Source: Indioceanicola profundi
GTDB taxonomy: Bacteria > Pseudomonadota > Alphaproteobacteria > Azospirillales > Azospirillaceae
Assembly (NCBI RefSeq): GCF_003568845.1
Contig: NZ_CP030127.1
Span: 124,001-188,000 of the forward strand
Direction of reading: 5' to 3'
Length of the DNA stretch: 64,000 bases
The notes beneath the pieces are model-generated. The model was not told the DNA's origin and did no database searches. It was given only the letters and a program-made list of their open reading frames with translations. This document shows positions 2,764 to 55,651 of this stretch, in pieces; the first letter of the stretch is position 1; each line of letters opens with the position of its first letter. Position numbers and translations under genes: made by a program.

Positions 2764-2784
2764 CTACATCGATCACTGCAGATC

Positions 2785-2835: not shown

Positions 2836-2861
2836 TGATGGTTTGGTTCGGAACCAGTGGA

Positions 2862-8240: not shown

Positions 8241-8269
8241 ATGGAAAAATCGAATGGAGGCAAGGACGA

Positions 8270-9990: not shown

Positions 9991-10049
9991 AATTACTCCG
10001 ATCGCACATTGACGTACCGTGTCAGTGCAGAACGGCGAACGGGCCGAAG

Positions 10050-10118
10050 CGGTCCGCGCACCGGGGCGATGCAGCAGCTTGCCCGGCAGCGGATATTGCT
10101 GCAAGCCCTCACCCGTGC
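10050..10118 (-). pseudogene. Decayed 3' fragment of a second spo0M-like gene
   Basis: On the minus strand the DNA just upstream of the small membrane protein gene encodes TGEGLQQYPLPGKLLHRPGA. This aligns with TGDDWQRIPLPGKLQGPGQ near the C-terminus of the Spo0M-like protein, and the DNA is also similar over about 50 bases. Upstream of this the similarity ends and the frame carries no spo0M features. It is read as the remnant of a duplicated or replaced copy. Confidence 0.5.
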
Positions 10119-10303
10119 GGCCAGGGCAGGGCTGGCAGAAGGGGGCTGGCCATGAACGAATGCAGGCGTATCAGCAGAAATAGGAAGCCAAAAGTGCGTA
10201 TGGCGCGGGCTGCGCCGCCATTTGCTCAAGGCCATGGTTGCCTGCGCATTCCTTACGCGCCTTAGTCTGGCCGCTCGGTCCGGCGGGGAAGGTTCGCCGC
10301 CTC

Positions 10304-10344
10304 GGCCAACTCTGCCTCAGCAAGCTGGCGTGGCAGAGTTGGCC
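10304..10344 (-). terminator. Hairpin after the beta-barrel gene
   Basis: A perfect 13-bp inverted repeat (GGCCAACTCTGCC / GGCAGAGTTGGCC) with a 15-base loop starts nine bases past the stop of the outer-membrane protein gene. No U-tract follows, so termination may need Rho, or the stem may protect the mRNA 3' end. Confidence 0.6.
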
Positions 10345-10352
10345 GACCATGA

Positions 10353-10970: not shown

Positions 10971-11152
10971 TCATTCACCTTCATATTTCATAACCTTATC
11001 AGCCTATTAAGGCTTGAGTTCGCGAGCGACCGGTTGCGTGGGCAGCTCAGCTGAACCAACGCGTGGTGATGCGAGATCATCCTTGCGTGAGGCCTGATGA
11101 TTGATCCCATTGCTTGCTGCTGCAGGACCGGCTTGGATTCCGCGTCACATCC

Positions 11153-11941: not shown

Positions 11942-12025
11942 GCCGGTATCCCGGTTGAGATGGAGCGGTGCCGCGCCGCACATCGGCGTGCGGCGCCAGT
12001 CGCGAGCGGGAAGAGGGAGTGGAAC

Positions 12026-13030
12026 TCAGCAGGACAGCGCAGTCGCGTCACTGTACTCGCCTTGCCGGCGATAACGGCTGGCAAGCCAAGCGCACAGGAT
12101 GAGCTGGAGCTGGTGGAAGATCATCAAGGGCAGGATGATCACGCCGACCTGTGCCGCCGGAAACAGGACGCGCGCCATCGGAACGCCTGAGACCAGACTT
12201 TTCTTCGATCCGCAGAAGACCAAGGCGATCCGATCCGGGCGGGAGAAGCCGAACTTCACCGCGATCCAGGTCGAGAAAGCTATGACGATCGCCAGGATTG
12301 CCACACTGCCCGCAATGATGGTTCCCAGATCCACCCACTCCACCTCGGTCCAGAGGCCTTCCAGCGTGGCCGCGCCAAAGGCGCTGTAGACCACAAGCAG
12401 AATGGAAAGGCGGTCTGTATAGCCCGTCCACGCCTTTGCCCGTTCCAGCACGCCGCCGATCCAGGGGCGAAGGAGATGGCCGGCCATGAATGGGACGAGG
12501 AGCTGGAGAAGGATCGACTGGATAGCTCCCAGTTGCAGGGCAGCCGAGGCCGAGCCTTCCGGCTGTAGCAGCATCGCCACGAACAGCGGGGTCAGGAACA
12601 TTCCTAGGAGATTGGAAAGCGATGCACTGCAGATCGCCGCCGGGACATTGCCGCCTGCGGTGGAGGTGAAGGCGATCGAGCTCTGAACCGTTGACGGCAG
12701 CACGCAGAGATACAGAAACCCGGCGGCAATTGCAGGGGCGACCAGCGCAGGGGACAGCAGGGTGATGGAAAGCCCCAGCAGCGGAAACACGATGAAGGTA
12801 GAACTCAATACGGTCAGATGCAGGCGCCAGTGACCGATGCCGGCCAGGATGGCGTCTCGAGACAGCTTCGCGCCATGCAGGAAGAAGAGCAGCGCAATGG
12901 CAAGGTCCGTCACGACATCAAGCGTTCGTGCCGCCTGTCCGGTCATCGGATAGAGGGCCGCAAGGCCTGCCGTCAGCAGAAGCAGCAGCAGGAAAGGATC
13001 GATGATGGAAGTGGGGAGCCGGAATCGCAA
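12026..13030 (-). CDS. Bile acid:sodium symporter-like (SBF/YfeH-like) transporter
   Basis: 334 residues, almost entirely hydrophobic with about ten helices. The motifs LDVVTDLAIALLFFLHGAKL, LCVLPSTVQSSIAFTS-x-AGGNVPAAICSASLSNLLG and LVFCGSKKSLVSGVPMARVL are characteristic of the SLC10A7/YfeH branch of the bile acid:sodium symporter superfamily. The crossover motif with Gly-Asn-Val-Pro is the expected ion and substrate site. The natural substrate is unknown; organic anions are likely. It lies on the inner membrane and shares the strand with uppP downstream. Confidence 0.88.
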   Translation of the reverse strand: MRFRLPTSIIDPFLLLLLLTAGLAALYPMTGQAARTLDVVTDLAIALLFFLHGAKLSRDAILAGIGHWRLHLTVLSSTFIVFPLLGLSITLLSPALVAPAIAAGFLYLCVLPSTVQSSIAFTSTAGGNVPAAICSASLSNLLGMFLTPLFVAMLLQPEGSASAALQLGAIQSILLQLLVPFMAGHLLRPWIGGVLERAKAWTGYTDRLSILLVVYSAFGAATLEGLWTEVEWVDLGTIIAGSVAILAIVIAFSTWIAVKFGFSRPDRIALVFCGSKKSLVSGVPMARVLFPAAQVGVIILPLMIFHQLQLILCAWLASRYRRQGEYSDATALSC

Positions 13031-13620
13031 CTCTGCCTCAAGCCGTTGTTCAATCCGTCCCTGACCGACAGAGGGGGGCCTGGTGGAAGCCGGCCAGGAG
13101 AGCAGATTCCGTAGAACATACGCGCCAGATTGCGTCCTAATCCGGGCACCACGCCTTTTACGATGCTCAAGGCCCTTGGACCTAGCATCCTTAAAGACCG
13201 CGCCTCTTCATTGAGGGGGAGTGCTGCCAGGCTTGGCCCCTGCGACAGGGGCATCGTCCCGAACAGTGTGTTTTTCCAGAGACGCCTAAGCGCGTAGAGG
13301 CACTAGCCCGATCTTTGGCGTGTGGCAAAACCGTGATCGGAAAGGGAAGCGACCACTGTGCGCACATTCGGAAGTGGCTTCCAGTCCCAACCGATTTTTC
13401 ATCTACTTCAATCGATTAGCAGCCACCTAGCCCCTGTGACAGGCGGCGCGTGGCGTGAGACCTGCCGGCGTGCTCTCCGTTACAAGCCTGTTCGCTAAGT
13501 AATCGGTTAACCTTTAGCGGCCAGCGTCAGCGCTGTTCAGAGCTTCGCACCATCGAGGTGAGAAGTAGCGCAGACCTCAGCATGTAAACCACACATGCGC
13601 CGTGACATAGGAACCGAAAC
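13031..13620. other. Long divergent intergenic region
   Basis: 590 bp between the divergent SBF-like transporter and the 877-aa hydrolase. No supported gene was found; the short open frames lack coding character. The part near 13480-13620 is less GC-rich (GTAATCGGTTAACC) and probably holds the hydrolase promoter. AGGAACCGAAAC just before the ATG provides a weak ribosome binding site. Confidence 0.4.
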
Positions 13621-16254: not shown

Positions 16255-16271
16255 CCAGGCATGATCCGGCA

Positions 16272-16299
16272 CCGGCCGCAGGGGAAACCCTGCGGCCGG
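16272..16299 (+). terminator. Rho-independent-type terminator after the fusion hydrolase
   Basis: A perfect 12-bp stem (CCGGCCGCAGGG / CCCTGCGGCCGG) closed by a GAAA tetraloop lies 17 bases past the stop codon and is followed by the moderately T-rich AATTCTATTT. Confidence 0.8.
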
Positions 16300-16465
16300 A
16301 ATTCTATTTGCGCTCGTTCACGGATCGGGATGGACATCTTGACCGTTACAGGGCGCGCAATGGCCAATGCTGCCTACCGGATCCTGGGGCAACTCCTCGT
16401 CATGGACGGCGTATCCGTCGGTAATCTTTCCCGCCTCGCCGGCTACATGGCCGAGACCAGGGGGG

Positions 16466-17364
16466 CTCAGAGTCTATTTGGAAACCCTACCTGTGGCTGG
16501 TGTGGCGTATAAGGACGGAGCCCATGGCGAGGTGGATCATGGCCTCGGAGACGTCGGTCCGCTTTTCGTAATCACGGACCAGGCGACGCCAGCGGGTCAT
16601 CCAGCCGAAGGCTCCTTCGACAACCCGGCGGCGAGGCAGGACCTTGAAGCCGGGCTCGTGATCGGTGCGGCGGACGACTTCGACGGCGAAGTCGAGGAAG
16701 CGGGCCTTGTCCATCCGCTTGCCCCGGTCGTAGGCACCATCGGCGAAGAGATGCTTCCCCCAGGGCCAGCGTTTCCGGATGGCGCCCAGGATGAGCTGCG
16801 CGCCCGCACTGTCGGAGATGTCGGCGGTGGTCAGGTTCACCATCAGCAGCCACCCGTCCGTGTCCACGGCAATGTGGCGCTTGGCAAGCGTTGATCTTCT
16901 TGCCCGCGTCGAACCCACGCTTGGCCGCAGCGGAAGCCTTGACCGACTGGCTGTCGATGACCCCAGCAGTAGGGCTCGCCTCCCGACCGGCGCGCTCGCG
17001 GTCGATCATCAGGGCCACATCGTGGATGGTGCGGAACAGCAGGCGGCGCACAAACACCCGGAACCACCAGTAGACCGTCCGCCAAGGCGGGATATCCTTG
17101 GGCAGCATCCGCCATCCCCCGCCGAACCGGGCTATGTAGCGGATCGCGTTCAGGATCGCGCAGGTCCATATCCCGCGTCCGGCCGGCTTTGCTCGGCGGC
17201 AGCAACGGCGCAATCCGCGACCGTTCCTCACAGGTCAGTTCCGTCGCGTAGCGCTTTGTCTTCTTCTCGATCTCGGACATCCGGCCACGGTTCGCTCGGG
17301 TCCTCATCCCGAGCTTGAACCACGCCGCCTGCCCGGCTTCAAGCCATTACAAACGGACTCTGAG
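16466..17364 (-). mobile_element. IS5-family insertion sequence, full length but inactivated
   Basis: 899 bp bounded by imperfect inverted repeats that begin CTCAGAGTCTATTTGGAA at the left and CTCAGAGTCCGTTTGTAA (minus strand) at the right. The interior encodes an IS5-family transposase on the minus strand that is broken by two frameshifts. No clear target duplication is visible at the edges. A nearly identical but truncated copy in the opposite orientation lies at 22474-22870, on the far side of the autotransporter and ialB-family genes. Confidence 0.85.
16487..17280 (-). pseudogene. IS5-family transposase, two frameshifts
   Basis: It starts MSEIEKKTKRYATELTCEER at 17280. The usual DDE transposase of about 270 residues is recovered only by changing frame twice. 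Near 17158-17160 two bases appear lost after GACCTGCGCG, where the protein should continue into ILNAIRYIARFGGGWRMLP. Near 16888-16893 one extra base appears in the stretch after GKKIN, before KRHIAVDTDGWLLMVNL. The segments contain VIDSQSVKA (first Asp), LFADGAYDRG (second Asp) and RRVVEGAFGWMTRWRRL (Glu), so catalytic residues are all present but not in one frame. The copy should not be able to move by itself. It ends RHTSHR. Confidence 0.85.
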
Positions 17365-17532
17365 GACTGCCGATGGGGTGCGCCGATCCGCGCAATCTCG
17401 GGCACACGACCAAAACCCAGGAACATCCGATCTGCTCCGCTCTGATCCGAAAATCACAAATACGTATTAACTACTTTGATATCGATCTGCTACAGACTAC
17501 AGCTCTGTATCCGCGATGTCCGAGTCCCACCC

Positions 17533-20500
17533 ATGCCCCGCCCCAATCTATCGCATGTGTTGTCTCTACTTCTCGCAACCACAGCAATAATATCACCTGC
17601 CTATGCGGCGGACATAACAATCACCTCGCCGGGCACCTTTATGATCGGCCCTGGACAGTCCGTCGAGTTCCAGGCGGAGAATGGGGCGACGTCCAGCAGC
17701 TCTGCGCAAGTGAACGGGGGCGTCACGATCGGCAGCATCGCCGCAACGGCGGCCGGCGTCGGCGTCCTCAACCTCACGGGCGACGGCGCCGGGGTGGACG
17801 GGTCCGTGAGCAACCTGTTTCGCACGGTGATCGCCGGCACCGGGGCCATGGGGATCACGGGAAGCGTAACCAACACCGGCGCCTTCTTCAGCCAGGCCGG
17901 AACCCTGACCGTCGGCGGGGATTTCCAGAATTCATACGTTAATTTCACCAACAACCGGGATGGAACGCTGATCCTGAACGGAGCGGTCAACGCCATCAGC
18001 ACTGTCCTGATGACGGGCAGCACCGGCAGCGTCGGCACCCTGACATTCGGCGCCGGAAGCGGCACAACGGTGACCGGCGCTGTGGGCGGCACGGCGCGGG
18101 TCAAGCTATTCAATCTCGACGGCGCCCTCGCCACCTTCAATGCCAATGTCGCGGCCGACCGCCTGAATTTCGGTGCCGACGGAACAGCATCCTTCCGCGG
18201 CGGCACCGTCAACGCCGCTTTCACCACCTCCGCCGACGGCACCGGCACCCTCAGCTTTCATCCTGGCGCGCAGACCACGGTGAACGGGACGATCGGCACC
18301 GGCACCCATGGACTGAAATTGGTGGAGTTGAAGAGCGGGACGGGCAGCATCGTCAGGTTGACCCAGGCCGTCTATGCCGACGCGGTGGCCGTCAACGGCC
18401 TGGGAACCCTGCTCCTCGACGCCGCCTCTCGGCTCGACACGGCAACCGGCAGCCCGAACGCCGCGACCGGCGCCCTGGTCAGCTTCGGCGCCGACGGGCT
18501 GCTGTCCATTTCCAGCCCGAATGTCAGGATCGGTGCCGTAACCACGACCGGCGGGACGAGCGGACAGGGCCGGATTTCGTTTTCCGGCAGCGGCGCATAC
18601 ATCCTGGGCGGCAGCCTCGGCACCGCCGACAACCGGATACGCCAGATCACCATCGGCAATGCCGCCGCCACGGTCGAAACCGCCGCGTCCTCATCGAACC
18701 ATGTCTCAAGCGTCCGCTTCTCGGCCGACGGCACGCTCTACCTCGGCGACGGGTCGAGCTTGACGGGCGACATCACGACCGCCACGCATCGGCGCGGAAC
18801 CGTCGTGTTCCGGGGGGGCTCCGGCGCGGTGATCCAGGGTGATGTCGGCTCCGGCGCGGCCGCGCTCAAGGCGCTCAACGTGGGCGGCCACGGGAGCGGG
18901 ACCATCGACGGCAGCATCTATGCCGAGACGATCTCTTTCAGCGATGATCCCGGCTACGGCCTGACGACCTCCGGCAACATCGTCGGCCAGGTGGAGGGCG
19001 CGCCCGGCGGTGGCGGCATTCTGACCTTCAGCGGCGTCACGACGACGGGCGGCCTCTTCGGCAGCGTGAACCCGCTGGGCTCCGTCGAGTTCAGGGGCGC
19101 CGGGATTTCGAGGCTGCGGCACGACATCAATGCAGGCTTCGGCGCAGGCGTCCTGATCGCCGGCCCGGACACGACTCTCAAGCTCGACGCGTCCGCGGCG
19201 ACCATTACAGGCCCATTCCGTAATCTCGGCGTCCTCGACCTGGGCGGGAACACCCTCACCGTGGCCGGCAACATGTCCGGCACCGGCAGCATCGCCTTTG
19301 CGGTGAGCGCCGCAGGCGCCGGCTACATCGTCAACACCATGAACAGCGCCAACTATGCGCCGGGCGTCGGCACGGTCGTCATCACGCCGACGGTGACCGG
19401 CACGGATGTCGCCAACGGCGCGACAGTGGCTCTGATCCGCGGCGCGGCCGGCAGCGCAGCGCCGGACTACGCGGGCACGGTCTTCACAGTGGCGGGCACC
19501 CAGACTCTGACTTGGACCGTCGCCTCGGGCGCGGCGCATATCGGATCGGTGGACCTCAACGGCTACACCATCACGGCCGCGGACACGGTCCTGGTCGCCA
19601 CCATTCCCGCCCCTCCTCCTCCTCCTCCTCCTCCGCCGCCGCCGCCGCCACCGCCACCGCCGCCACCACCACCGCCGGCCGAACCGGCCCCGACGGAGCC
19701 TGTTCCGACCACCCCGACCACGCCCACCGAACCGACCCCGACACCGCCTCCCCCTCCTCCGCCGCCGCCGGTCGCGCCGACCCCGACGGAGCCCGCACCT
19801 GCGCCGCCGACCGGCAACGGGGTGATCGACACCTCACGGCCGGTCTTCACCAATGGCGACAGGGCGGTGGAGAGCGTCACCGTCACCTTCGCCGGCGGCG
19901 TGCTGAAGCCGGTGGCCAGCCTGACACTGCCCCAGGCCATCACCGTCACGTCCGCCAACGGCTCCATCAATCCGGACGGCAACACGGTGACGCTGTCGGG
20001 TTCTGTCGGCGGGAGCGGCGTTCTCACGGTCGACGGCCCAGGAACGGTTGTCGTTTCCGGCGACCTCGCCAACACCGGCGGCCTTGTCGTCCAGCAAGGC
20101 GGGTTAGTGGTGGCCACAGGCGGTCGCGTCGAGGGACCCCTGGTCGTAGGGAATGACGGCCGGTTGGGCGGCAGCGGCACGATCCTCGGATCGAGCGTGG
20201 TTTCAGGCACCCTGGCCCCCGGCAGTTCCCCGGGCACGCTCACCTTCTCGGCCCCGCTGACCCTGACCGCGTCAAGCACCTACCAGGTCGAGATCGATGG
20301 CCCCGCCGCCGGCGCGGGAGCCGGGGCGCATGATCGCATCGTCCTGACTGGCGCGAACAGCGGCTTCAACGCCGCGGGCACGCTGACCCCGATCCTGCGC
20401 GGCATCACCGGCGATGCCGCCAACACCTACACCCCGGACATCGGCCAGACCTTCACGATCGTGCAGGCCGAAGGCGGCGTCTTCGGGGCGTTCGCAACCA

Positions 20501-42814: not shown

Positions 42815-44191
42815 TTATTCCCCGTGCAGCAAATCCCACAGCGTTCCCGCTGCGGCGGCAGCTTCGATGATCTTTTTTGCCGGACAAGCCTGCCGATAGC
42901 TCCAGGGCATCATTGCGTGCCGCGCCGCCGACTCCCTTGGTGTCATGCCATCCAGTAAATCCAGCTCCGTGTCGAGCAACGCGATAGCAGCCTCTTGCCC
43001 CAACACCGGCGCCGCAATCGCCAGCATGGCATCCATCTCGCGCTGAATCAGGGCAGCAGTCCTGAGTGGTTCGAGCTGCCCGGCACCGCCGCAAACTGCC
43101 GGGCCTTTCCTCACCGCCGCTTGGCGTCGGGCTGCAAGCGCGAGCCATTCGGCGCGAGTAAGGCGGTGCGCCGAGGCGGGGGGAGGGGACTTCGGGCGCC
43201 AGCCTGGACGAAAACCAATCAGCCGACGGGCGTCCGTGGTGCCGTCGATGGGGTCGGCGGGATGCAGCGCAAGATCCTCGATGGCCAAGCTGTCCGGCTG
43301 CTCATCGCAGCGGCAATACGGGCAGGCCCGATGATCGTCATATCCCATGCCCAGCACCGGGAGACCTCGGACAATCGCGCTGCCGCGAACCCCCTGCCGC
43401 CGTTCATAGTCCTTGATGAGGCTTTCTGCCCTCGGGGCATTCACGATGTCCACAAAGGCCGGCTTCAGATCACCACGCACCGTATCCAGATGCAGCACGA
43501 TCCCACTGATGCGATGGTAACTCTGGCCACATCTTCCGCACAGAATGGGCGCGCCGGCGACAGTAAACGGAACCCGGTCCAGCCCCTGTCCACGATCATA
43601 TTTCCAGCGTCCGGTCAGGACGCCCTCCATTTGCCGACGTAGGGAAATCTGCTGAGCCTCGGGCGCTCCGGATCGGATGGTGAAGACCGCCATTTCCTTC
43701 AGGTCGCGGGGAAGGGCGTCATAATCCCGGTGGCGCAGGAAAAACCACATGCTCTTTAGCCCCGCGGCTCGGTATCTGCTGATTCGTGCACGCGTGACGA
43801 AAACTTCCTGCGGTGAACGCTGGATCTCCACAGCGATCTGGTAGCCCCTGGTCGGGTGCGTTAATAGAACATCGGCCCGCCAGCCTTCTCCCGCGGCTTC
43901 GAGTTCAACCCCAAACCCAAGCTCTTGGGCAACTCGGTAGGCTTCGACTTTGAGCCGTTCGTGGACGATACTTTCACCGCCTGCGCCGGCGCAGGGACTG
44001 CCTATGTGGGAGAAGAAGAAAAGGCCGGAGCTTGATGTCTTCGCGATCCCCCGCCCGCCACAGCATGCCATGCGGATGTCGCCAGCCTTGCTGCGCTGGC
44101 GCACCGCGGACCAAGCGGCTTCGTCATGATCGATCGCCAGGATCACCCTGTCATCAAGCAAGGCCTTTTGAGGCATGGGCAAGTCGCTCAT
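42815..44191 (-). CDS. CoiA-like nuclease-domain protein
   Basis: 458 residues if started at MSDLPMPQKALLDDRVILAI; the start is uncertain because no good ribosome site is seen. Residues about 80-125 contain ESIVHERLKVEAYRVAQELG, then RADVLLTHP and IAVEIQRSPQ. This is the His, Asp, Glu-x-Gln signature of the CoiA/restriction-endonuclease-like fold. Cysteine pairs CGRCGQSYHR (near 215) and CPYCRCDEQ (near 290) may bind zinc. The C-terminal 70 residues (LDTELDLLDGMTPRESAA) resemble the antitoxin/Xre-associated DUF2384 region, but weakly. CoiA in Gram-positive bacteria promotes recombination during transformation; the role of alphaproteobacterial relatives is unknown. It is neighboured by a DUF2934 gene on the same strand. 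Confidence 0.7.
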   Translation of the reverse strand: MSDLPMPQKALLDDRVILAIDHDEAAWSAVRQRSKAGDIRMACCGGRGIAKTSSSGLFFFSHIGSPCAGAGGESIVHERLKVEAYRVAQELGFGVELEAAGEGWRADVLLTHPTRGYQIAVEIQRSPQEVFVTRARISRYRAAGLKSMWFFLRHRDYDALPRDLKEMAVFTIRSGAPEAQQISLRRQMEGVLTGRWKYDRGQGLDRVPFTVAGAPILCGRCGQSYHRISGIVLHLDTVRGDLKPAFVDIVNAPRAESLIKDYERRQGVRGSAIVRGLPVLGMGYDDHRACPYCRCDEQPDSLAIEDLALHPADPIDGTTDARRLIGFRPGWRPKSPPPASAHRLTRAEWLALAARRQAAVRKGPAVCGGAGQLEPLRTAALIQREMDAMLAIAAPVLGQEAAIALLDTELDLLDGMTPRESAARHAMMPWSYRQACPAKKIIEAAAAAGTLWDLLHGE

Positions 44192-44386
44192 CCGCAAAGT
44201 GAGGGCAGCCTGTAGCCGCCTGCAAGGCGATCCTGCGGAATGTCGGCTGCACCGGAGCACATCCGGACCTGCCGGGGCATTGCCCTTCAGCACGATACAG
44301 CCATGGAGCGGGGCTTGATGAGCAACCCGCCCCATGGCTTTGGCGAGACAGATCAGTGCTGGATCATAACCGGTACTGACGCCAGA

Positions 44387-46918: not shown

Positions 46919-47350
46919 ATGCGCCGTGCCACCCTGTTCCGTTCGAAGCTTCTGGCAATCAGTGCACTTGCCCTGCTTCACGCGACGCCCGCGCCCGCCC
47001 AGCAACCAGCCGAGGCTCCGCTGTCGGAAGAGACGCTGCAGCGCTTCGCAGACCTCTGCCAGGAGGTCCATGAGGCCCGGAGCGGCAAGCAACAGTCGAT
47101 GACGGCCCTGGCCGAGGTTGACATGGACGAACTGGCGAAGAAGCATGGATTTACCGGCCAGGAGGAGACTTCAGCCATCTCCATGCGCATCGCCATGGTG
47201 AATATGTACACGCCCGATGACCCCGACGCCCAAGCCATGCTGAACGCCGTTGAGGACCCGGACATGAAGGCCATGATCGCCCGTGCCAAAGCCGACGCGC
47301 CAGCCGTGAAGTCGAAGGCGGAGGCGCTTGCGGTCTGCACTGCGCGCTGA
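46919..47350 (+). CDS. Small secreted protein, unknown function
   Basis: 143 residues with GAGGAG before the ATG. The signal peptide is LLAISALALLHATPAPA, cleaved near residue 27. The mature part is helical and acidic with two cysteines (ADLCQEVHEARS near the start and AVCTAR at the end), which could form a disulfide. No family is recognised. It stands 54 bp after gluconokinase and upstream of the transglutaminase-like gene; a hairpin structure separates it from the latter. Confidence 0.65.
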   Translation: MRRATLFRSKLLAISALALLHATPAPAQQPAEAPLSEETLQRFADLCQEVHEARSGKQQSMTALAEVDMDELAKKHGFTGQEETSAISMRIAMVNMYTPDDPDAQAMLNAVEDPDMKAMIARAKADAPAVKSKAEALAVCTAR

Positions 47351-47427
47351 GCCGCATCGGCCCGCGGGGGCTGCCCCTTTCCGGGTAGTGCTTGAAATCA
47401 CGAAGACGGGCAGTGGAAACCCGCTGC

Positions 47428-47492
47428 GGTGAAATCCGACGGAAACAGAAGGGCGGCATACCGCCCTGGCTTTTCGTTGTGAGGATTTCACC
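47428..47492 (+). promoter_or_regulatory. Nested RNA hairpin sequestering the translation start
   Basis: Two nested perfect inverted repeats lie directly before the transglutaminase-like gene. The outer is GGTGAAATCC (47428-47437) with GGATTTCACC (47483-47492); its 3' arm abuts the ATG at 47493 and includes part of the GAGG ribosome site. The inner is AGGGCGG-CATA-CCGCCCT (47450-47467) followed by GGCTTTTCG, which looks like a terminator. The leader could thus control both termination and translation of the two-gene operon. Confidence 0.6.
47450..47474 (+). terminator. Terminator-like inner hairpin
   Basis: Perfect 7-bp GC-rich stem (AGGGCGG / CCGCCCT) with a CATA loop and a short T-run (CTTTTC). 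It may end the transcript of the small secreted protein gene, or act as an attenuator for the following operon. Confidence 0.6.
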
Positions 47493-49781
47493 ATGGGATC
47501 GCTGGCGCCATCGGTATCAAGTGTGCGGAGAGCGGCAGCTGTGCTGCTGGGCGGGGTTGTGCTGCTGCTGTCGGCCCCCGCCGCCGCGAATGAGCCTGGG
47601 CAACAGCGTGCGGCGCTGGAACAGGCTGTGGCGGTCCCGCTGGGGGCAGGCCGGCTGCAAGCGCACCGGACCGGCTCCTTGGATGAGATCTTTGCCTCGG
47701 TGGCCGTTGGCATCCGCTGGGAGCCCTATGTGGGCATCCTGCGCGGCGCGCGCGGAACGGCGCTGGCCCGGGGCGGCAATGCGGCCGATCAGGCTCTGCT
47801 GCTGGCCGATGCCCTGCGCGCCCAGGGATACCGCGTGCGGTTCGTGCGCGGCGAACTGAAGGGCGAAAACCTCGATACGCTGATACGCGGCCTGTTTCCG
47901 CCGGAGCTGCCGGCGGAGCCGGTCGCAGGGGATATGAAGCCTTATGATCCGGCCAAGGATGAAGGGCTGCGGCGGTTGGCTGCCGACCATATCTGGCTGG
48001 AGGTCGAACAGGGAGCCGGGTCCTGGCTGCCGCTAGACCCGTCCTTCCCCCGCGCCCGGATCGGGGAGGCCTATGCGGAGGCTGCCGCCCGGATGGATTC
48101 GCTGCCCGACGATCTGCATCAACGGGTCGCCCTGGTCCTGAAGGAGGAGACTGCAGCCGGAGCCGTGCGCGAGCTGGGCCGGTTGGAGGAGCGCACGGCG
48201 GAGATCGGGCTGATGCCCGTGTCCCTTGCCATCCAGGGCGTGTCACAGCTTCCGGCGGAGGAGGAGAAAGGCGGGGGCGGTGCGGCCGCCCTGTTCGGCA
48301 GCGCCCTGTCCGGCGGCCCGGCGGAGCCCGAGACCAAGGAAGCGCCGCCGCAAGGACCGCTCGGAAACAGCTACCGGCGGGAGTTGCGGGTCGGCGACCG
48401 GTCATTCGCCTGGGCCGACAGCCTTGTGCTGGACGCCGATCCCGGCACCCGCATCCGGCGCGAATGGCTGGAGATCACGGTGCAGGCGCCGGGCCAGGAT
48501 GCGCGCACTGTCACCCGCGACCTGTATGTGGCCGATGCGCCGGGCAGCGTTGCCGGAGCCCCTTCCGCTTATCGCCGCTATGCGGTCGCCATCGTTCCCG
48601 GTCCGCTGAATGACGAGGATTTGCAGACTCAGCGCCGGACCATCGCCGGCCGCATCAACCTGGACAAGCTGAAAGCCGAAGCCGCCGAGCTGACCGACGC
48701 CGCCGAGGCTGCCGCGATGGATGCGGCCGTGGCGCCGCTGGCCGGGCATCTGGCGGCGCTTGCCTTCGCCGCCGAGTCCGACGCGATCGCCGCCGGGATG
48801 GCCTACAGCAACAGCGTGGCGGTCTCGCAGGTGCTTCCGCGCGTGCTGATTGTCTCGGTCGAGGGGGATGCGGAGGAGGGCGGCTACCGCACGGCCCTGG
48901 ATCTGCGGCTGGACGAGGTGGCGGCCTGGCCCTATCCGGGCGCACCCGCGCGCGCCGCATCCAACTACCAGCGCGGTCGCGGCATCCAGAACGCATTACT
49001 GGAGGGCCGCTTCCTGGAGCAGTTGCTGGGCACGGCGCAGTCCGCCAACACGGTGAACCTGATGGCCCTGGTCCCCGGCGGGGTGGAGGGGCTCTATTCC
49101 ATCGATCCCGGACAGGAGGCGGAGCTGGACCGGCTGGCGGGCCTGTCCCCCTATGCCCGCCGCCTGATCGAGGGCACGCTGGCGCAGGGCCGGTCCATCG
49201 TCATCCCGAAGCAGGCGGTGGAGCTGGGCGGGCGCGCCCGCTATGGCTGGTGGGACATCGACCCGGTGTCGGGCCGCATGATCGGCGTCATGGATGACGG
49301 TTTGCACCAGGCGCTGGTAGACCACTCCATCACCCAGGAGAAGATCGGCCTCAGCGACGATATGGGCAAGGCGGTGGGCGTCATCGTCGGCGGCACGTCC
49401 ACCCAGTTCCTGCTGATGAGCGGCATCCTGCTGGAAGGCCGGGTCACCCGGGAAATGGTGGATGAGATCCTGACGGTCATCAAATATCTGAAATGCTTCT
49501 CCTGCCCGACGCTGGAGGCCAAGGCGCACCTGAAGGCGCAGAGCGGCGACTCCTGCTTCTATGAAAGCGCCGGCGTCGGCTACACCAATTCCGGCATCGG
49601 CTTCTGCCAGAAATACACGGACGGCTTCAGCTGCGCCGCCACCGCCATCCTGTCTGGGGTAACCGACCTTCTGCGCAAGGACGAGCAGCAGCGCGGCGTG
49701 CCGAAACAGGGGCAGACGCCGCAGATCAAGCGGAACCTGACCGGCCTGTACCGAGACATCAAGCTGATCTGCGAGCAGTGA
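47493..49781 (+). CDS. Secreted transglutaminase-like protein lacking the catalytic cysteine
   Basis: 762 residues with a signal peptide of about 33 residues (AAAVLLGGVVLLLSAPAAA). Residues about 60-190 resemble a bacterial transglutaminase-like domain: RGGNAADQALLLADALRAQG, where the usual Gly-x-Cys position is Ala97, then DHIWLEVEQGAGSWLPLDPS with His166 and Asp182. With no cysteine the domain is probably not an active protease or transglutaminase. The middle is beta-rich (FAWADSLVLDADPGTRIRRE), and the C-terminus has a cysteine-rich segment (KCFSCPTL; DSCFYES; FCQKYTDGFSC). The stop overlaps the next gene's first possible start, so it is coupled with the giant vWA protein and probably forms a periplasmic or surface complex with it. 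Confidence 0.75.
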   Translation: MGSLAPSVSSVRRAAAVLLGGVVLLLSAPAAANEPGQQRAALEQAVAVPLGAGRLQAHRTGSLDEIFASVAVGIRWEPYVGILRGARGTALARGGNAADQALLLADALRAQGYRVRFVRGELKGENLDTLIRGLFPPELPAEPVAGDMKPYDPAKDEGLRRLAADHIWLEVEQGAGSWLPLDPSFPRARIGEAYAEAAARMDSLPDDLHQRVALVLKEETAAGAVRELGRLEERTAEIGLMPVSLAIQGVSQLPAEEEKGGGGAAALFGSALSGGPAEPETKEAPPQGPLGNSYRRELRVGDRSFAWADSLVLDADPGTRIRREWLEITVQAPGQDARTVTRDLYVADAPGSVAGAPSAYRRYAVAIVPGPLNDEDLQTQRRTIAGRINLDKLKAEAAELTDAAEAAAMDAAVAPLAGHLAALAFAAESDAIAAGMAYSNSVAVSQVLPRVLIVSVEGDAEEGGYRTALDLRLDEVAAWPYPGAPARAASNYQRGRGIQNALLEGRFLEQLLGTAQSANTVNLMALVPGGVEGLYSIDPGQEAELDRLAGLSPYARRLIEGTLAQGRSIVIPKQAVELGGRARYGWWDIDPVSGRMIGVMDDGLHQALVDHSITQEKIGLSDDMGKAVGVIVGGTSTQFLLMSGILLEGRVTREMVDEILTVIKYLKCFSCPTLEAKAHLKAQSGDSCFYESAGVGYTNSGIGFCQKYTDGFSCAATAILSGVTDLLRKDEQQRGVPKQGQTPQIKRNLTGLYRDIKLICEQ

Positions 49782-49789
49782 GGTCCATC

Positions 49790-52700
49790 ATGATCATGCG
49801 CCGTTGCCGGCTTCCGGCCGCCTCCATGCTTGCCCTTATCCTGACCGCCGCGGGTTCCATCGCCGCCGCCGAGGGGTTCGGAGACGATCCCTATGCCGGC
49901 GATCCGGCGGGCTATCCGCAACCGGTGCCTGTCGAGACGGTCGGCCGCAAGGCGGACCCGGTCCGGCATCCTTCCCTGGCCGCGGCCCCGCTGTATGCAC
50001 CGGCCTTGGCGGCGGATGCCAGCCGCTCGGTCCGGATCGAACTTCTGTCCGTCGCCCGGGGAGCCGAGATTGCCGGCACCCCCGTGCCGGAGGGGATGGA
50101 GGCCGTGGTCCTGGTGACCCGCTGGACCAACCTCACCCCGCGTCAGTCGGTGGAGAAAAGCCAGTTGGAGGGCAAGGCCGACCGCAGCATGGGGGCGGGC
50201 GCCCTTCTGGGCGGCGGCGGAAAGGGAAAGGCCGAGCGGGTGGAGGTGGATGTCGCCTACAAGGTTCCGGCCCCATCCCGGCATGCCTTCCTGGCCGCCG
50301 ACGGCTTGGCCTATGAAATGGCCGAGGCGGGCGCAGGCCTGCCGAATGCGTTGCCGCTGAGCGAGGATTTCATCCTGGCCCGGCACGGGGAGAGCCGGGA
50401 GGCGCGGATGGCCTTCCTGGTGCCCAAGGGCGCCAAGGACCTAGCCCTACGCTATTTCGACAATATAGCGGGCCACGTCACCTTGGCGGTGGCGGGCAGC
50501 GGGGAAACGGCGCTCGCCCCGCCGAAGGGGATCGGGCAGATCGGGCGGCTGGGGCCGCTGGAGGTCGCGGTCCGGGGCATCACCTGGCGCGACCGGCACG
50601 GCGACACGGCTGCGCCGAAGGGCTGGCGCATAGCCGTTGTCGATCTGGTCGGCCGCGGCAAGGGCGGGGCGGAGGACGCACAGGCCTTCGCCCGCCTGGA
50701 CCCGACCCGGTTCACCTGGCTGGCGGGCGACAAGGGGCAGGTGGCCTTCGGGTTGCCGCAGTTGAACGGCGTGTCCGCCCTGTCCTTCGCACCTGAAATC
50801 TTCCAGCGGCGCGAGCTGGCCTTCCTGGTGCCCGCAGCGGCGGAGCGGTTCAGGCTCGGCATCCAGGGTCCGGACGGGGCGGTCAGCCTGCCCGCAACCC
50901 CGGGCGCACCCGCGCCCCTGCCCGATGCGGCCGTCCGCCATGCCGACGGTTCGGTTCTGGCCCTGCATGTCTTCGGACGGCGTTGGGAGGGGGAGCATCT
51001 GGTGGTGGATATCGGCGTCCTGCCCAAGGACCCGGCGCGCGGCGTTGATTTTTCCCTGGATCAGCAGTTCCGGTTGATCGCGGGCGGCAAGGAGCTGGCG
51101 CCCGACATGGCGATGACGGGCCGGCTGACCCGCCGCCCCCCGAGTCCAGCCACCGCGCCGCCGACGACCGCGCTGCGCTTTGAACTGGCCTATGCCGTGC
51201 CCAAGGATGCCGCGGCCGATCGTCTGGCCTACAAGGGATTTGCCGGGGACAAGCAGCTCGACCTGTCCGCCCTGTCCGTTGCGGGCAGCCGTGGCACGGC
51301 CACGCCCGAGGGCACGACGGATTTCCCGGTCTTCGCTGAACCTGCAGCCCCGCCCACCCCTGTAGCCTCCCCGGCCGCTGCGCCCGCCTCGCCGGCGGAG
51401 CGCCGGCCCGTGGAACTGCCGCGCTATGATTTCGCCAAGGCCGGGCAGGAGCAGGAGCCGAACAACAAATTCGAAATGGCCGGGCCGCTGGGGCCGGACC
51501 TGACGGTCAAGGGCACCCTGACGCCCAACGACACCGACCTGTTCTTCTTCGATGTGGAGGGGGAGCCGCAGCTTTGGGTGTTCGAGGCGGAGGGGGAGGG
51601 CGTCGGCGAGCTGGCCTATCTGGACGCCAGCGGCTGGGCGGCGGAGCAGCGGCCCCGCGACAACGCAACCGGTCCGATATGGTTGGACAATTTGTATCTG
51701 GCGCCGGGCCGGCATTGGATTTCCCTGCGCAGCTACAGCAAGGGCAGCGACTATACCCTGCGCGCGGTTCCGCTGGGCGCGCCGACCGCGGCGGATGAGC
51801 AGGAGCCCAATGGGCGTCCCAACCGTGCCCATCCGCTGACCCTTGCCGGGATGCAACGCGGCCTGATCGCCCATCCGCGCGATGTGGACCATTACAGCTT
51901 TGCGCTGGAGGTTCCGTCCTATGTGCGGCTGACGCTGGACTCGCCGCCGGACCTCAAGCTGGACATGCGGCTAGAGGGTGGCCGGATAGCCCTGTATGGC
52001 GGCGGCCCGAGCGCCCCGGACGGAAAGCCGGTCGTCTACGAGGCCTTGCTGGGTCCGGGCGACTTCGCGGTCCAGGTCTCCTCCGGCGGCCGCGGTGCGA
52101 GCCGCACGCACTACCATCTCTCCCTCGAACTGCTGGACCCGTTCGAACTGCCAGCGGACCTTGAGCCCAACGATATGGCCGCAGCCGCCCGGCCCATCGA
52201 TGGCAGGCAGATCGTCAATGGCCAGCTCGGCACGTTCCAGGATGAGGACTGGTTCCTGCTGCCCGAGGTGGGGGCGGAGACGGAGCTGACCGTGACGGTG
52301 GAGGCGGAAACGGCCCCCTATGTCACCTTGCGCCAAGCCGATGGCCGCAATGCTAAGTCCGAACGGCTGGCTCCGGACCCGAAGCGCAAATCGGACGCGG
52401 CACAGATCCTGACGGCAACCCTGCAGCCCGGCGCCCGCTACATGCTGGGCCTCAATGGCCGTACCAGCTATCGCCTGACCACCGCCTTCTCTCCCGAACT
52501 GCCCGCGTCCGCCGCGGTTCCTAAGGGGGAAGCGCCGGTGATCGCGATGGCAGGCGAGGTGCCCACCTTCGCCGCCTGGCGGGCGGAGGCACAGACGGCG
52601 GAGCTGCCGGTCACCCTGTCCAATCCCGGAAAGCAGCCGCAGACGGTGGAGTTGCAGGCCTCGACCGGTCGGGCCGGCTGGCAGGTGACGCCGCCATCGG

Positions 52701-55651
52701 GGCCGATCACCCTTGCCCCCGGTGAGAGCCGGAACGTCCCGGTGCGCGTCACGGCGGATGCCGACCTGTCCGATCTGGGACCCACCGCCCTGTTCCTGCG
52801 TGCCCGGGCGGCGGGCGGTGCGGGCCGTACCTTGCGGGCGGAGATTCCAGCCGCTTGCGCGGCCCCGCCGCAATCTCCCCATCCCTTCCGGCGCGTTCCC
52901 GACGCGTTGCGCGGCGGCCTGAATCTGGCGTCCCTGGCGCTGGGCGCGGTGCCGGCCGGTGAAAGTGCCGTGGCGCAGCTGTTCGACGGCGTGGCGCCGC
53001 TGGGCGGGGAATGGTCCGTCGCCAGCGGCGGCATGCCCGCGGACATCACGGTGCAGCTTGCGGGCGACGGCACGCTGCCCCTTGCGGGTATCGCCATCCT
53101 GCCGCAGAGCCAGGACGGCGACCAGGACCAGCTTGGCCCCTTCACCGTTCTGGTCTCCGATGACGGGCAACAGTTCCGGGAGATCCACCGGGGCGTGCTG
53201 ACCCCGGCGGAGCAGGAGCAGTTCTTCGTCTTCGACCGGCCGGTCGCCGCCAGGCATCTGCGCCTGCGGCTGGAGCCGAACAGTCCGCTCAGCACCTATG
53301 GCCGCGCCGCCCTGGCGGAGGTGAAGGCGATTGCCGTGCCGGACGCCCGGCTGCCGGGCGCCACCGGACCGAATCTGGCCAACCCGGCACTGGGCGGCCA
53401 CATCGTCCGGGCCGTTCCGCGCGCCTACAACTATGACATCCTGGAAGGTATGCTGGCAGGAAGCGGCGAGCGCCCGGCCCTGCACCAGACCAGGGAAGAC
53501 CGCGGCCCGGTCGAATGGGTGGTGGGTTTCCAGGATAATCGTGCGGCGCGGATCACGGAACTGCGCTGGCGCGAGCAGGCGCAAGCTCCCGCCAGTCATG
53601 AGAAGCAGTTCAGGACGGTGGAGGTTGCGGCAAGCCTGGAGGGGCCGCTGGGCCCGTGGGTGGAGCTGGGCGACTGGACTTTGGGTCTGGAGCCAGACGG
53701 CACCTCCGCCCTGCCGTTCGAAACGCCGCAATGGGCGCGGTTCCTGCGCTTCCGTCAGGCGACGCCCAGTGGGGAGACCGCTTCCTGGCTGCTCCCCGAA
53801 AAGCTGGAGGTGATCGAGCAGGCGGCGGGCGGCGATTACCGCTCCATCCTCGGCGAATGGGGCCTCTACGCCCGCGACGCCATCCGGGAGGAGCTGGCTG
53901 CTGGCGCGAACATGGCAATCCTGCCTGCCGCCGGCCCGGACGCCGGCGCCGCGGCGGCAGAGGCGCTGGTGCTTGCCGCCGGCACGACCCATGCCGACCA
54001 GGTCAGCGTCGGGGAGGATGAGGACTGGTATGCCGTCGATGTGCCAAAGGATGCCAATCGCCTGGAGTTCCTGCTGGGCGGTGCCGGCTCCTCCCGCGTT
54101 GCGGCGGTACTGCTTGGGCCGGACGGTGCGGAGATCGCGCTGACGGAGGTGCGCCGACCCGACGGCAGCCGCGAAGTCTATGCCGATGTGGCGGGCGGCG
54201 CCCGCTACCTGCTGCGCGTGGCGGAGCCGCCGCGTTCCATCATGGTTGCGTGGGACAACAGCTCCAGCGTCGGGCCGTACCATCCCACCATGTACAGGGC
54301 GTTGCAGGGCTTCTTCGATGCGCTGCAGCCGGGGCGGGAATGGGCGAATCTGCTGCCTTTCCAGGAGCGCGGCGCCAAGCCCCTGCTGGATAGCTGGAGC
54401 GATGATGATCTTACGCTGAAACGGGCGCTTGCCGCCTATAACCGGCGCGATTCCAGTAGCAACGCGGAGAATACCCTGGTGGGCGCGCTGGCAGCACTGG
54501 AACAGCAGCCCGGCAACCATGCGGTCGTGGTACTGACGGATGCCATTTCCAACGGCTTCGACAGCTCACAAGAGCTTTGGAACCGGCTGGAGGCGCTGCG
54601 GCCGGCCATCTTCCCGCTGGAACTGCACCTGCGCGACAGCTCCGTGACACATGCGCAGGACCTGATGCAGGACTGGGCCGCGGTGAACCGGGGCCATTAC
54701 GCCTCCTTCCGCAGCTCCGGCGATCTGGACGGTGCGTTCGCCCGGGCCGCCTGCCTGATGCGCCGCCCGGTCGAATACAGCGTTGCCGCTGCGACCCGCT
54801 ATGTGGAACCGCCCAAGCCGGGTGAGCTGGCGGTTCGTTGGGAGAAAGGGCAGGAGATGGCCGGTGCGGCCGTGGAGCTGGTGTTCGATGCCTCCGGTTC
54901 CATGCGGTCCAAGAAGCATCTGGTCGATGGGAAGCTGCGTATCGACGTTGCGAAGCAGGTGATGCGGGAGGTGGTATCCGGGCTTCCCGAGGATGTGAAT
55001 GTGGGCCTGCGTGTCTATGGCCACCGCATAAAGGAAGGCCAGAAGGGCGATTGCCAGGACACCGAGCTGATGGTCCCCGTGGGCAAGCTGGACCGCAAGG
55101 CCATGCTGAACCGGATCGAAGGCGTCAAGGCGCTGGGCACCACGCCCATTGCCTACGCCCTGCGGCAGGCCGGCGCCGACCTGGCGAAGACGGACGGGCG
55201 CAAGATGATCCTGCTGGTCACCGACGGAGAGGAGGAGTGCAAAGGCGATCCGGCCGCGGTGATCAAGGAGCTGCGCGCCGGGGGAATGGATTTGCAGGTG
55301 AATGTGGCCGGCTTCACGCTGATCGGCGATGCCGTCAAGAACAGCATGCGCGCTGCGGCGGCGGCAGGCGGCGGCACCTTCTTCGATGCCCAGGACCGCC
55401 AAGGCCTTCTCGAGGCGATCGGGACGGCGCTGGCCGTACCGTATGATCTTGTGGATGCGGGCGGCGTCGTGACCGCCAGCGGCGTGGTGGGGAGCGGATC
55501 GGTATCCGCGCCGCCGGGCACTTACAATCTGGTGGTCCACACTGCCAAGGGCGCTGTCACGGTCGGCCAGATCGAGCTGCGCGACGGCGAAACAGGCCAG
55601 ATCGAATTGTCCGGCAAGGACGGGCAGCTCACCTACAGGGCGGGGTCCTGA
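49790..55651 (+). CDS. Giant secreted protein with PPC, discoidin-like and two vWA domains
   Basis: 1953 residues from the ATG at 49790 with GAGG eight bases upstream; GTG at 49778 is an alternative. The signal peptide is about 27 residues. Order: two N-terminal beta domains (30-530); three pre-peptidase-C-like domains, each opening with an E-P-N motif (QEQEPNNKFEMAGPL near 554, DEQEPNGRPNRAHPL near 669, DLEPNDMAAAARPID near 790); two discoidin/F5-8C-like domains (about 1087-1184 and 1254-1350); another PPC-like domain (SVGEDEDWYAVDVP near 1403); a first vWA domain (IMVAWDNSSSVG near 1484); a second vWA domain with intact MIDAS (VELVFDASGSM near 1695; LLVTDGEEECKGDP); and a C-terminal beta domain. 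It looks like a large metal-dependent adhesion or scaffold protein. Its only operon partner is the transglutaminase-like gene. A hairpin follows. Confidence 0.82.
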   Translation: MIMRRCRLPAASMLALILTAAGSIAAAEGFGDDPYAGDPAGYPQPVPVETVGRKADPVRHPSLAAAPLYAPALAADASRSVRIELLSVARGAEIAGTPVPEGMEAVVLVTRWTNLTPRQSVEKSQLEGKADRSMGAGALLGGGGKGKAERVEVDVAYKVPAPSRHAFLAADGLAYEMAEAGAGLPNALPLSEDFILARHGESREARMAFLVPKGAKDLALRYFDNIAGHVTLAVAGSGETALAPPKGIGQIGRLGPLEVAVRGITWRDRHGDTAAPKGWRIAVVDLVGRGKGGAEDAQAFARLDPTRFTWLAGDKGQVAFGLPQLNGVSALSFAPEIFQRRELAFLVPAAAERFRLGIQGPDGAVSLPATPGAPAPLPDAAVRHADGSVLALHVFGRRWEGEHLVVDIGVLPKDPARGVDFSLDQQFRLIAGGKELAPDMAMTGRLTRRPPSPATAPPTTALRFELAYAVPKDAAADRLAYKGFAGDKQLDLSALSVAGSRGTATPEGTTDFPVFAEPAAPPTPVASPAAAPASPAERRPVELPRYDFAKAGQEQEPNNKFEMAGPLGPDLTVKGTLTPNDTDLFFFDVEGEPQLWVFEAEGEGVGELAYLDASGWAAEQRPRDNATGPIWLDNLYLAPGRHWISLRSYSKGSDYTLRAVPLGAPTAADEQEPNGRPNRAHPLTLAGMQRGLIAHPRDVDHYSFALEVPSYVRLTLDSPPDLKLDMRLEGGRIALYGGGPSAPDGKPVVYEALLGPGDFAVQVSSGGRGASRTHYHLSLELLDPFELPADLEPNDMAAAARPIDGRQIVNGQLGTFQDEDWFLLPEVGAETELTVTVEAETAPYVTLRQADGRNAKSERLAPDPKRKSDAAQILTATLQPGARYMLGLNGRTSYRLTTAFSPELPASAAVPKGEAPVIAMAGEVPTFAAWRAEAQTAELPVTLSNPGKQPQTVELQASTGRAGWQVTPPSGPITLAPGESRNVPVRVTADADLSDLGPTALFLRARAAGGAGRTLRAEIPAACAAPPQSPHPFRRVPDALRGGLNLASLALGAVPAGESAVAQLFDGVAPLGGEWSVASGGMPADITVQLAGDGTLPLAGIAILPQSQDGDQDQLGPFTVLVSDDGQQFREIHRGVLTPAEQEQFFVFDRPVAARHLRLRLEPNSPLSTYGRAALAEVKAIAVPDARLPGATGPNLANPALGGHIVRAVPRAYNYDILEGMLAGSGERPALHQTREDRGPVEWVVGFQDNRAARITELRWREQAQAPASHEKQFRTVEVAASLEGPLGPWVELGDWTLGLEPDGTSALPFETPQWARFLRFRQATPSGETASWLLPEKLEVIEQAAGGDYRSILGEWGLYARDAIREELAAGANMAILPAAGPDAGAAAAEALVLAAGTTHADQVSVGEDEDWYAVDVPKDANRLEFLLGGAGSSRVAAVLLGPDGAEIALTEVRRPDGSREVYADVAGGARYLLRVAEPPRSIMVAWDNSSSVGPYHPTMYRALQGFFDALQPGREWANLLPFQERGAKPLLDSWSDDDLTLKRALAAYNRRDSSSNAENTLVGALAALEQQPGNHAVVVLTDAISNGFDSSQELWNRLEALRPAIFPLELHLRDSSVTHAQDLMQDWAAVNRGHYASFRSSGDLDGAFARAACLMRRPVEYSVAAATRYVEPPKPGELAVRWEKGQEMAGAAVELVFDASGSMRSKKHLVDGKLRIDVAKQVMREVVSGLPEDVNVGLRVYGHRIKEGQKGDCQDTELMVPVGKLDRKAMLNRIEGVKALGTTPIAYALRQAGADLAKTDGRKMILLVTDGEEECKGDPAAVIKELRAGGMDLQVNVAGFTLIGDAVKNSMRAAAAAGGGTFFDAQDRQGLLEAIGTALAVPYDLVDAGGVVTASGVVGSGSVSAPPGTYNLVVHTAKGAVTVGQIELRDGETGQIELSGKDGQLTYRAGS

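What the first reader, a model, noticed from the sequence alone, without database searches (positions are those of the whole stretch)
47428..55651. Coupled vWA/PPC giant and cysteine-less transglutaminase-like protein behind a structured leader
A 762-aa secreted transglutaminase-like protein (Ala97 where the Cys is expected; His166 and Asp182 kept) is coupled to a 1953-aa secreted protein with PPC-like, discoidin-like and two vWA domains. The pair forms an operon with no known enzyme or transport genes. A noncatalytic transglutaminase fold together with a large MIDAS-bearing scaffold suggests a protein-binding or surface system without a described function. The combination is not one I can name from known pathways.
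Basis: partly seen in the sequence, partly recalled or inferred. Interest (0 to 1): 0.68.

Follow-up and report, generated by a model that had tools for sequence, protein, structure and literature searches.

The report
Secreted pseudo-transglutaminase with giant adhesin-like partner
Two probably secreted proteins, one an enzyme-shaped protein that has lost its catalytic cysteine and the other a giant chain of adhesion-type domains, are encoded side by side in this bacterium and in a few other alphaproteobacteria, and probably form a surface-binding pair of still unproven function.

Summary
A 762-aa transglutaminase-fold protein (Ala97 at the Cys site, His166 and Asp182 kept) is followed directly by a 1953/1957-aa protein with DUF4352-like, PPC, F5/8C and two MIDAS-bearing vWA domains, behind a strong hairpin over the ribosome-binding region (z -3.4 to -4.9). 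The pair is rare but no orphan: three other alphaproteobacterial MAGs carry the TG protein (52-54% identity), each with the giant's homologue directly downstream (one complete, two cut short by contig end or gap); two Myxococcales TG loci show no giant. The missing Cys is a family trait: 0 of 34 sequences have it, while His and Asp stay in 33 of 34. Most relatives found are RHS proteins; such 'inactive transglutaminases' of polymorphic toxins were described in 2012 (PMC3482391). New here is a stand-alone form without RHS, in a conserved pair with a vWA/PPC/discoidin giant. Most likely it is a noncatalytic peptide-binding docking or retention protein for an adhesin-like partner; its fold's best PDB matches include LapG, the protease of giant adhesins. 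Secretion, binding, location and function are inferred.

The parts
47428..47492 (+). Hairpin leader: 10-bp outer stem GGTGAAATCC/GGATTTCACC that takes in part of the Shine-Dalgarno region, and inner terminator-like stem 47450-47467
   Evidence: z -3.4 to -4.9, 0 of 200 shuffles as stable; terminator-like scan (7 found in the region, 3.9 expected); unique in genome. Regulation is inferred
47493..49781 (+). Stand-alone pseudo-transglutaminase, probably secreted, 762 aa (P0001)
   Evidence: Pfam PF01841 E 2.3e-4; relatives
47637..48206 (+). Transglutaminase/LapG-like fold, residues 49-238; Ala97 at the Cys site, His166, Trp168, Asp182
   Evidence: model pLDDT 81-95 per block over residues 61-130 and 161-240, lower at 49-60 and 131-160; PDB matches LapG Z 10.4 and, tied, PeiW 9.8; residue counts
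49188..49310 (+). W-W-x-x-(D/E/N)-P-x-x-G motif kept in the six compared subfamily members; L017 and L020 have a D-P-x-T-G motif in the same alignment columns
   Evidence: alignments (no significance given)
49485..49649 (+). C-terminal Cys-rich segment; with the last Cys of the protein, six Cys in each of the six compared subfamily members, five of them in the same columns throughout
   Evidence: alignment; model confidence is low here
49778..55651 (+). Giant multidomain protein, probably secreted, 1957 aa from GTG 49778, or 1953 aa from ATG 49790 (P0002)
   Evidence: homologue in L027 46% identical over residues 7-1957
49997..50905 (+). Two N-terminal Ig-like domains (about residues 74-376), the first YcdA/YjhA-like (DUF4352 label recalled), the second MPT63-like; perhaps a third after them (low confidence)
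   Evidence: model with mean pLDDT 55, about 70-89 in these domains apart from loops; PDB matches 4r4g Z 11.8, 3cfu Z 10.6, 1lmi Z 9.5; Pfam DUF4352 only E 0.066
51440..52492 (+). PPC-like domains (about residues 555-905)
   Evidence: Pfam PPC 702-769 E 1.6e-4; phmmer to a collagenase chain, residues 557-732, E 3.3e-4; the third copy by eye
52895..53812 (+). F5/8 type C (discoidin-like) domain and perhaps a second one
   Evidence: Pfam 1066-1167 E 7.8e-6; two stretches in L027, only the better one located
54200..54787 (+). First vWA domain (by eye), MIDAS D-x-S-x-S/T/D kept in window and L027
   Evidence: VWA_2 has two stretches in L027, only the better one located; alignment; motif recalled
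54845..55447 (+). Second vWA domain, DASGS/T/TDG MIDAS, holding the best-conserved block of the giant (72% identity in one 50-residue block)
   Evidence: plasmid-borne relatives at 31-39% in the 20 rows listed

Best explanation
The locus encodes a two-protein surface-adhesion or scaffold module. Both proteins are exported by Sec (inferred from N-termini). The first is a transglutaminase/LapG-fold pseudoenzyme that cannot do Cys chemistry but keeps the His, Trp and Asp of the pocket; it most likely binds a peptide segment noncovalently and so docks, retains or presents the giant partner made by the next gene. The giant is a chain of Ig-like, PPC, discoidin-like and two metal-dependent vWA domains that would bind extracellular ligands. 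A strong hairpin over the first ribosome-binding site probably limits translation of the pair. Shown: genes, domains, Cys loss across the family sample, conservation of the pair in four loci, hairpin strength in silico. Inferred: secretion route, binding of the two proteins to each other, surface location, adhesion, regulation.
For: Pair kept in 4 of 4 alphaproteobacterial loci with the full-length TG protein, same order and strand, 8 to 28 bases apart; the giant is complete in the window and L027, seen over residues 15-351 in L026 (contig end) and 18-254 in L028 (assembly gap). Between window and L027 the giant keeps 34-70% identity per 50 residues over residues 1-650 and 50-72% over 1451-1900, 26-48% between, and both MIDAS sites. 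0 of 34 family sequences have Cys at site 97, while His166, Trp168 and Asp182 are each kept in 33. The top fold matches include LapG (Z 10.4, 124 residues, rmsd 2.9; tied with pseudomurein endoisopeptidases and TglA); LapG-type proteases act on giant adhesins, one of which, DvhA, has a vWA domain (PMC13090378, passages read). Zhang et al. 2012 suggested anchoring by peptide binding for the RHS-linked members; menin, a papain-like-fold protein without the Cys, is a known scaffold (PMC10318531, passages read). Two other Cys-less members lie beside large Ig-rich proteins: G546 (at least 3024 aa, frames overlap by 4 bases) and G565 (1221 and 927 aa).
Against: No complex was modelled; no experiment. 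The neighbour giants in G546 and G565 were not compared with P0002. Of the 26 loci other than L027 examined, only L033 has a same-strand ORF over 600 aa within 400 bases, and that one looks like RHS sequence; so most relatives have no such partner. In Myxococcales L029 the TG protein has no giant beside it, so it can act alone or with other partners. The giant's last 57 residues are only 26-29% identical to L027. No membrane anchor was recognised in either protein (by eye only). The genome's LapG-family gene (Peptidase_C93) lies on another contig, and P0001 was not listed for that family.
Confidence: 0.42

Rival explanations
1. It is an offshoot of a polymorphic RHS toxin system: the N-terminal inactive transglutaminase region survives without the RHS shaft and toxin tip, and the giant is an adhesion helper of a contact-dependent weapon.
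For: Of 10 further relatives scanned, 7 have RHS repeats and one of these a nuclease-toxin tip; of 17 plasmid records matched by L017's protein, 9 are annotated as RHS. In the three annotated RHS loci L021, L022 and L025 a small hypothetical gene follows directly, as immunity genes do. Significant pairwise similarity of P0001 to these proteins covers about residues 62-202.
Against: No RHS family match in P0001 or P0002 at E up to 10; no toxin or immunity gene recognised after the pair. The stand-alone form is itself kept in 7 loci (window, L026-L030, L048), all with the transglutaminase match only (plus one chance-level hit in L028), so it is no recent wreck. The giant's vWA end is well conserved up to about residue 1900, though its last 57 residues vary.
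Confidence: 0.2
2. The vWA giant and TG-fold protein work in the envelope as an assembly or quality-control device and not in adhesion.
For: vWA domains with MIDAS also serve in complex assembly (recalled); the genes lie 8 bases apart or overlap.
Against: PPC and F5/8C domains related by sequence to collagenase and hyaluronidase domains point outwards (the hyaluronidase match is weak, E 0.17); no MoxR-like gene was recognised next to the pair (by eye).
Confidence: 0.2
3. P0001 is an enzyme with non-Cys chemistry, using the strictly kept His/Asp and the acidic residue at 99, perhaps with a metal.
For: His166 and Asp182 are each kept in 33 of 34 sequences although none has the Cys, and residue 99 is Asp or Glu in all 34.
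Against: The acidic residue two after the Cys site is also present in the three Cys-bearing transglutaminase-family domains of the genome (C-x-D), so it is no replacement; kept residues may serve folding or peptide binding.
Confidence: 0.06
4. The two genes are neighbours without a functional tie.
For: Myxococcales relatives have the TG gene without a giant match in the locus.
Against: 4 of 4 alphaproteobacterial loci keep the order although the genes further out differ between window, L027 and L028; the three relatives do share one small upstream gene.
Confidence: 0.07

Closest known systems
Inactive transglutaminase domains of RHS polymorphic toxins (Zhang et al. 2012, PMC3482391, passages read)
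   Same: N-terminal signal sequence followed by a transglutaminase domain without the full C-H-D set; significant similarity to RHS-linked domains over about residues 62-202; Cys missing in all examined
   Different: No RHS repeats or toxin tip; stand-alone protein with a conserved separate vWA/PPC/discoidin giant. The paper says that the domains are followed by RHS repeats; its held text (first 300,000 of 357,715 characters) has no match for vWA, von Willebrand or PPC
LapG / BTLCP (Peptidase_C93) adhesin protease of the Lap system (PMC13090378, passages read)
   Same: Fold (Z 10.4 over 124 residues); encoded with giant adhesins
   Different: Catalytic Cys absent; PF06035 not listed at E up to 10; the giant has a Sec-type N-terminus by eye, and no type 1 secretion or LapD gene was recognised among the neighbours (by eye)
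Inactive transglutaminase with seven TM helices (HM2192, Shewanella vesiculosa, PMC12096838, passages read)
   Same: Transglutaminase domain annotated as inactive, in the cell envelope; its loss raised vesicle production
   Different: Predicted inner-membrane protein with TM helices; not compared by sequence here
vWA, PPC and F5/8C multidomain proteins in general
   Same: Same domain types; second vWA 31-39% identical to plasmid-borne VWA proteins in the rows listed
   Different: The full architecture was met only in L027 and, as N-terminal parts, in L026 and L028; no plasmid record held 80% of it and none of 39 related genomes besides the own matched residues 1-1341

Membership tests
Transglutaminase-like superfamily (PF01841), as a fold | Transglutaminase-core profile match and fold | tested here: met
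   21.8 bits, just under the cut-off of 23, in hmmscan; 24.5 bits, over it, in the genome search; close relatives 16.8 to 36.6 bits, L017 55.9 bits; fold matches
Transglutaminase-like superfamily (PF01841), as an enzyme | Cys-His-Asp catalytic triad | tested here: not met
   Ala97; His and Asp kept
Inactive transglutaminase of RHS polymorphic toxins | Signal sequence, then transglutaminase domain lacking triad residues | tested here: met
   signal sequence by eye
Inactive transglutaminase of RHS polymorphic toxins | Followed by RHS repeats and a variable toxin tip | tested here: not met
   762-aa protein; no RHS family listed at E up to 10
LapG / BTLCP (PF06035) | Profile match to PF06035 | tested here: not met
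   not listed at E up to 10; the genome's one match lies on contig C1
LapG / BTLCP (PF06035) | C-H-D triad | tested here: not met
   Cys absent
LapG / BTLCP (PF06035) | Active-site-adjacent calcium site | not tested
   named in PMC13090378; not examined in P0001
vWA domain with MIDAS | D-x-S-x-S, T and D of the metal site | tested here: met
   both vWA domains, window and L027 (read by eye); motif recalled
Known anti-phage defence proteins | PADLOC profile match | tested here: not met
   0 families at E up to 0.1 for P0001, P0002 and the L027 giant

The most novel reading that the evidence does not exclude
A LapG-like fold has been turned into a cysteine-free, noncovalent receptor that clamps a giant, metal-dependent adhesin on the surface: a retention system working by binding where the Lap system works by cutting, and the same clamp is what the very long RHS proteins carry at their N-termini.
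Probability: 0.18. Interest if true: 0.68.

Novelty: new variant of a known kind. Interest (0 to 1): 0.45.

Why it matters
A family sample in which the catalytic Cys is lost throughout but His, Trp and Asp stay nearly invariant is a good case for asking what a dead protease/transglutaminase pocket does. The stand-alone, paired version here is smaller than the RHS proteins and could show how inactive transglutaminase domains anchor large secreted proteins, a proposal of 2012.

Tried and rejected
Considered and rejected: that the missing Cys is a sequencing error or a loss in this protein alone (0 of 34); that the pair is an orphan of one genome; that it matches a listed anti-phage system or phage family; that the leader is a known RNA family or a repeated element.

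Led nowhere: the TG protein in plasmids (no match); both proteins in viral contigs; first genome-contig scan with the single protein; TG protein in 385 class genomes at E 1e-6 and 398 phylum genomes at E 1e-3, where only 2 candidates per genome were scored (besides the own genome 0 and 2 matches, the latter G565 and G546); TG protein in 59 relatives (own, G028, and weak partial matches in G004 and G020). NCBIfam: none for P0001, only weak matches far under the cut-offs for P0002. Solved structures by sequence: none for P0001, for its profile two Rhs-family chains in the part beyond the domain and a weak NAD synthetase match. The conserved small gene upstream of the pair in L026-L028 has no Pfam match (L027 copy) and none in the host genome (L027 copy).

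Literature: six answered searches listed no paper that I recognised as being on this pair; and one search listed nothing. Only listings and passages were seen; no paper was read whole, and only the held open-licence library was searched.

Bias to tell: one of the two peptide patterns demands Ala or Pro at site 97. Of the 34 sequences, 19 do not match that pattern, and none of the 19 has Cys (13 Ala, 3 Asp, 1 Gly, 1 Val, 1 Ser). The other pattern demands His and Trp; of the 17 sequences that do not match it, 16 have His and 16 have Trp. Left out: G004 and G020 (weak partial matches, homology not shown), G028 (taken as the same as L050), and 11 of the 17 plasmid records, which were not fetched.

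RHS content was then checked by profile.
Full report
What is there. Two same-strand genes at 47493-49781 and 49778-55651 encode a 762-aa and a 1957-aa protein (1953 aa if the giant starts at the ATG at 49790, 8 bases after the first stop codon, with a GAGG before it). Both start with signal-peptide-like sequence (by eye). The first matches Transglut_core weakly (E 2.3e-4), the second F5_F8_type_C, PPC and VWA models weakly; a homologue of the giant passes the VWA_2 and F5/8C cut-offs. The residue at the Cys position is Ala97; the three strong transglutaminase-family matches elsewhere in this genome have Cys in the corresponding G-x-C-x-D-x-A motif.

The leader. The 65 bases 47428-47492 form one long hairpin with a 10-bp perfect outer stem and a terminator-like inner stem; z is -4.9 for 47420-47500, -4.8 for 47351-47495 and -3.4 for 47380-47510, with 0 of 200 shuffles as stable each time. 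The outer stem takes in part of the Shine-Dalgarno region. The hairpin is single-copy in the genome and matches no Rfam family. In L027 and L028 a small gene ends 26 and 28 bases before the TG start codon, which leaves no room for it there. Translation control or attenuation is inferred only.

Relatives. In the host's family (Azospirillaceae, inferred because G028's contig has the length and the 2137-aa protein of the named Nitrospirillum iridis record L050), 1 of 82 genomes, the window's own, has a full-length TG match; G028 (an RHS protein) and G020 (unexplained, residues 19-100) match in part. The first 1341 residues of the giant matched only the own genome among 39. In 385 class and 398 phylum genomes no other full-length TG match was found, with 2 candidates scored per genome. 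A scan of GTDB contigs with a three-sequence alignment returned 25 loci: three alphaproteobacterial MAGs with the nearly full-length protein (52-54% identity), two Myxococcales (26-27%, residues 65-604), one further stand-alone form (L048, 35% over residues 76-225) and 19 others matching only around the transglutaminase domain. In all three alphaproteobacterial loci the giant's homologue follows directly: complete in L027 (46% over residues 7-1957), cut by the contig end in L026 (residues 15-351, 54%) and by an assembly gap in L028 (18-254, 48%). L029 and L030 have no giant match; L030's contig starts inside the TG gene. L048 ends 46 bases after its TG gene, so it tells nothing on the downstream side. 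The three alphaproteobacterial relatives also share a small gene upstream (in L026 only its end, E 1.4e-5), which was not found in the host genome.

RHS link. Of ten further relatives scanned by profile, seven have RHS repeats (L031, L032, L033, L036, L042, L044, L047), one of them with a nuclease-toxin tip; L034 and L048 show only the transglutaminase match, L020 no match. The subfamily of the window protein (window, L026-L030, L048) shows no RHS match. Significant pairwise similarity of P0001 to RHS-linked proteins covers about residues 62-202 only; the longer multiple alignments suggest more but carry no significance.

The cysteine. In an alignment of the window protein with 33 relatives, site 97 is Ala in 26, Asp in 3, Pro in 2, Gly, Val and Ser in 1 each, and Cys in none; His166, Trp168 and Asp182 are each kept in 33 of 34. 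One search pattern favoured Ala/Pro at that site; among the 19 sequences free of that pattern there is still no Cys. So the pocket is without its nucleophile throughout the sample, while the other residues are held.

Structure. The model of P0001 (20-row alignment, mean pLDDT 64) is confident in the transglutaminase domain, fair in the middle and poor after residue 610. Its best PDB matches are LapG (Z 10.4, 2.9 A over 124 residues), tied with pseudomurein endoisopeptidases (9.8, 9.7) and TglA (9.7); Foldseek alone gave no match with E below 0.001. The model of the giant's residues 31-560 (four rows, mean pLDDT 55) supports two Ig-like domains, the first like YcdA and YjhA (Z 11.8 and 10.6), the second like MPT63 (Z 9.5). 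MIDAS residues are complete in both vWA domains of the window and L027.

Reading. The TG domain belongs with the inactive transglutaminase domains that Zhang et al. described at the N-terminus of RHS polymorphic toxins and took for surface anchors. Here the protein stands alone and its conserved partner is a separate adhesin-like giant. Two other Cys-less members also lie beside large Ig-rich proteins (G546, G565), but of the 26 other loci examined only L033 has a same-strand ORF over 600 aa within 400 bases, and that looks like RHS sequence. I propose a docking or retention role for P0001 towards P0002, with adhesion through the giant's PPC, discoidin-like and vWA domains. The comparison with LapG concerns what it may work like; by profile and by the missing Cys it is not a LapG. 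No binding or location has been shown.

Score. The pair is real, conserved in four loci and rare, and no paper on this combination was recognised in the listings of the held library, but both the pseudoenzyme family and the giant's domain types are known. New variant of a known kind; interest 0.45.

Noticed in passing
L017 (G565) 8530-18183: Three consecutive minus-strand genes: a 927-aa protein with CarboxypepD_reg and toroid-repeat matches, a 1221-aa He_PIG/MG2 protein, and a 1043-aa Cys-less transglutaminase-like protein; type VI secretion-like genes lie further on (by eye). A prenyltransferase-repeat protein also precedes the RHS-linked member in Spartinivicinus.
   Followed up: partly
L026-L028, just upstream of the TG gene: A conserved small protein (about 180 aa), secreted-looking by eye, without Pfam match, accompanies the pair in all three relatives but was not found in the host genome.
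   Followed up: partly
L018 (G546) 2-9076 and 9073 onward: An Ig-repeat protein of at least 3024 aa overlaps by 4 bases with the start of a very long Cys-less transglutaminase protein that looks RHS-linked by eye.
   Followed up: partly
window 46919-47350: A 143-aa secreted-looking protein without clear family match lies between a kinase gene (shikimate/gluconate-kinase-like) and the hairpin.
   Followed up: partly
L053 (G000 contig C1): The host has one Peptidase_C93 (LapG family) match elsewhere; whether it has its own giant adhesin was not examined.
   Followed up: no
window 49485-49649 and the last codons of the TG gene: The C-terminus of the TG protein has six Cys, matched by six in each of five relatives from Alphaproteobacteria to Myxococcales, which suggests a disulfide-bonded module.
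   Followed up: no
window 42815-44335 (-): A 506-aa ORF matches the CoiA nuclease-like competence family (E 4.6e-5).
   Followed up: no
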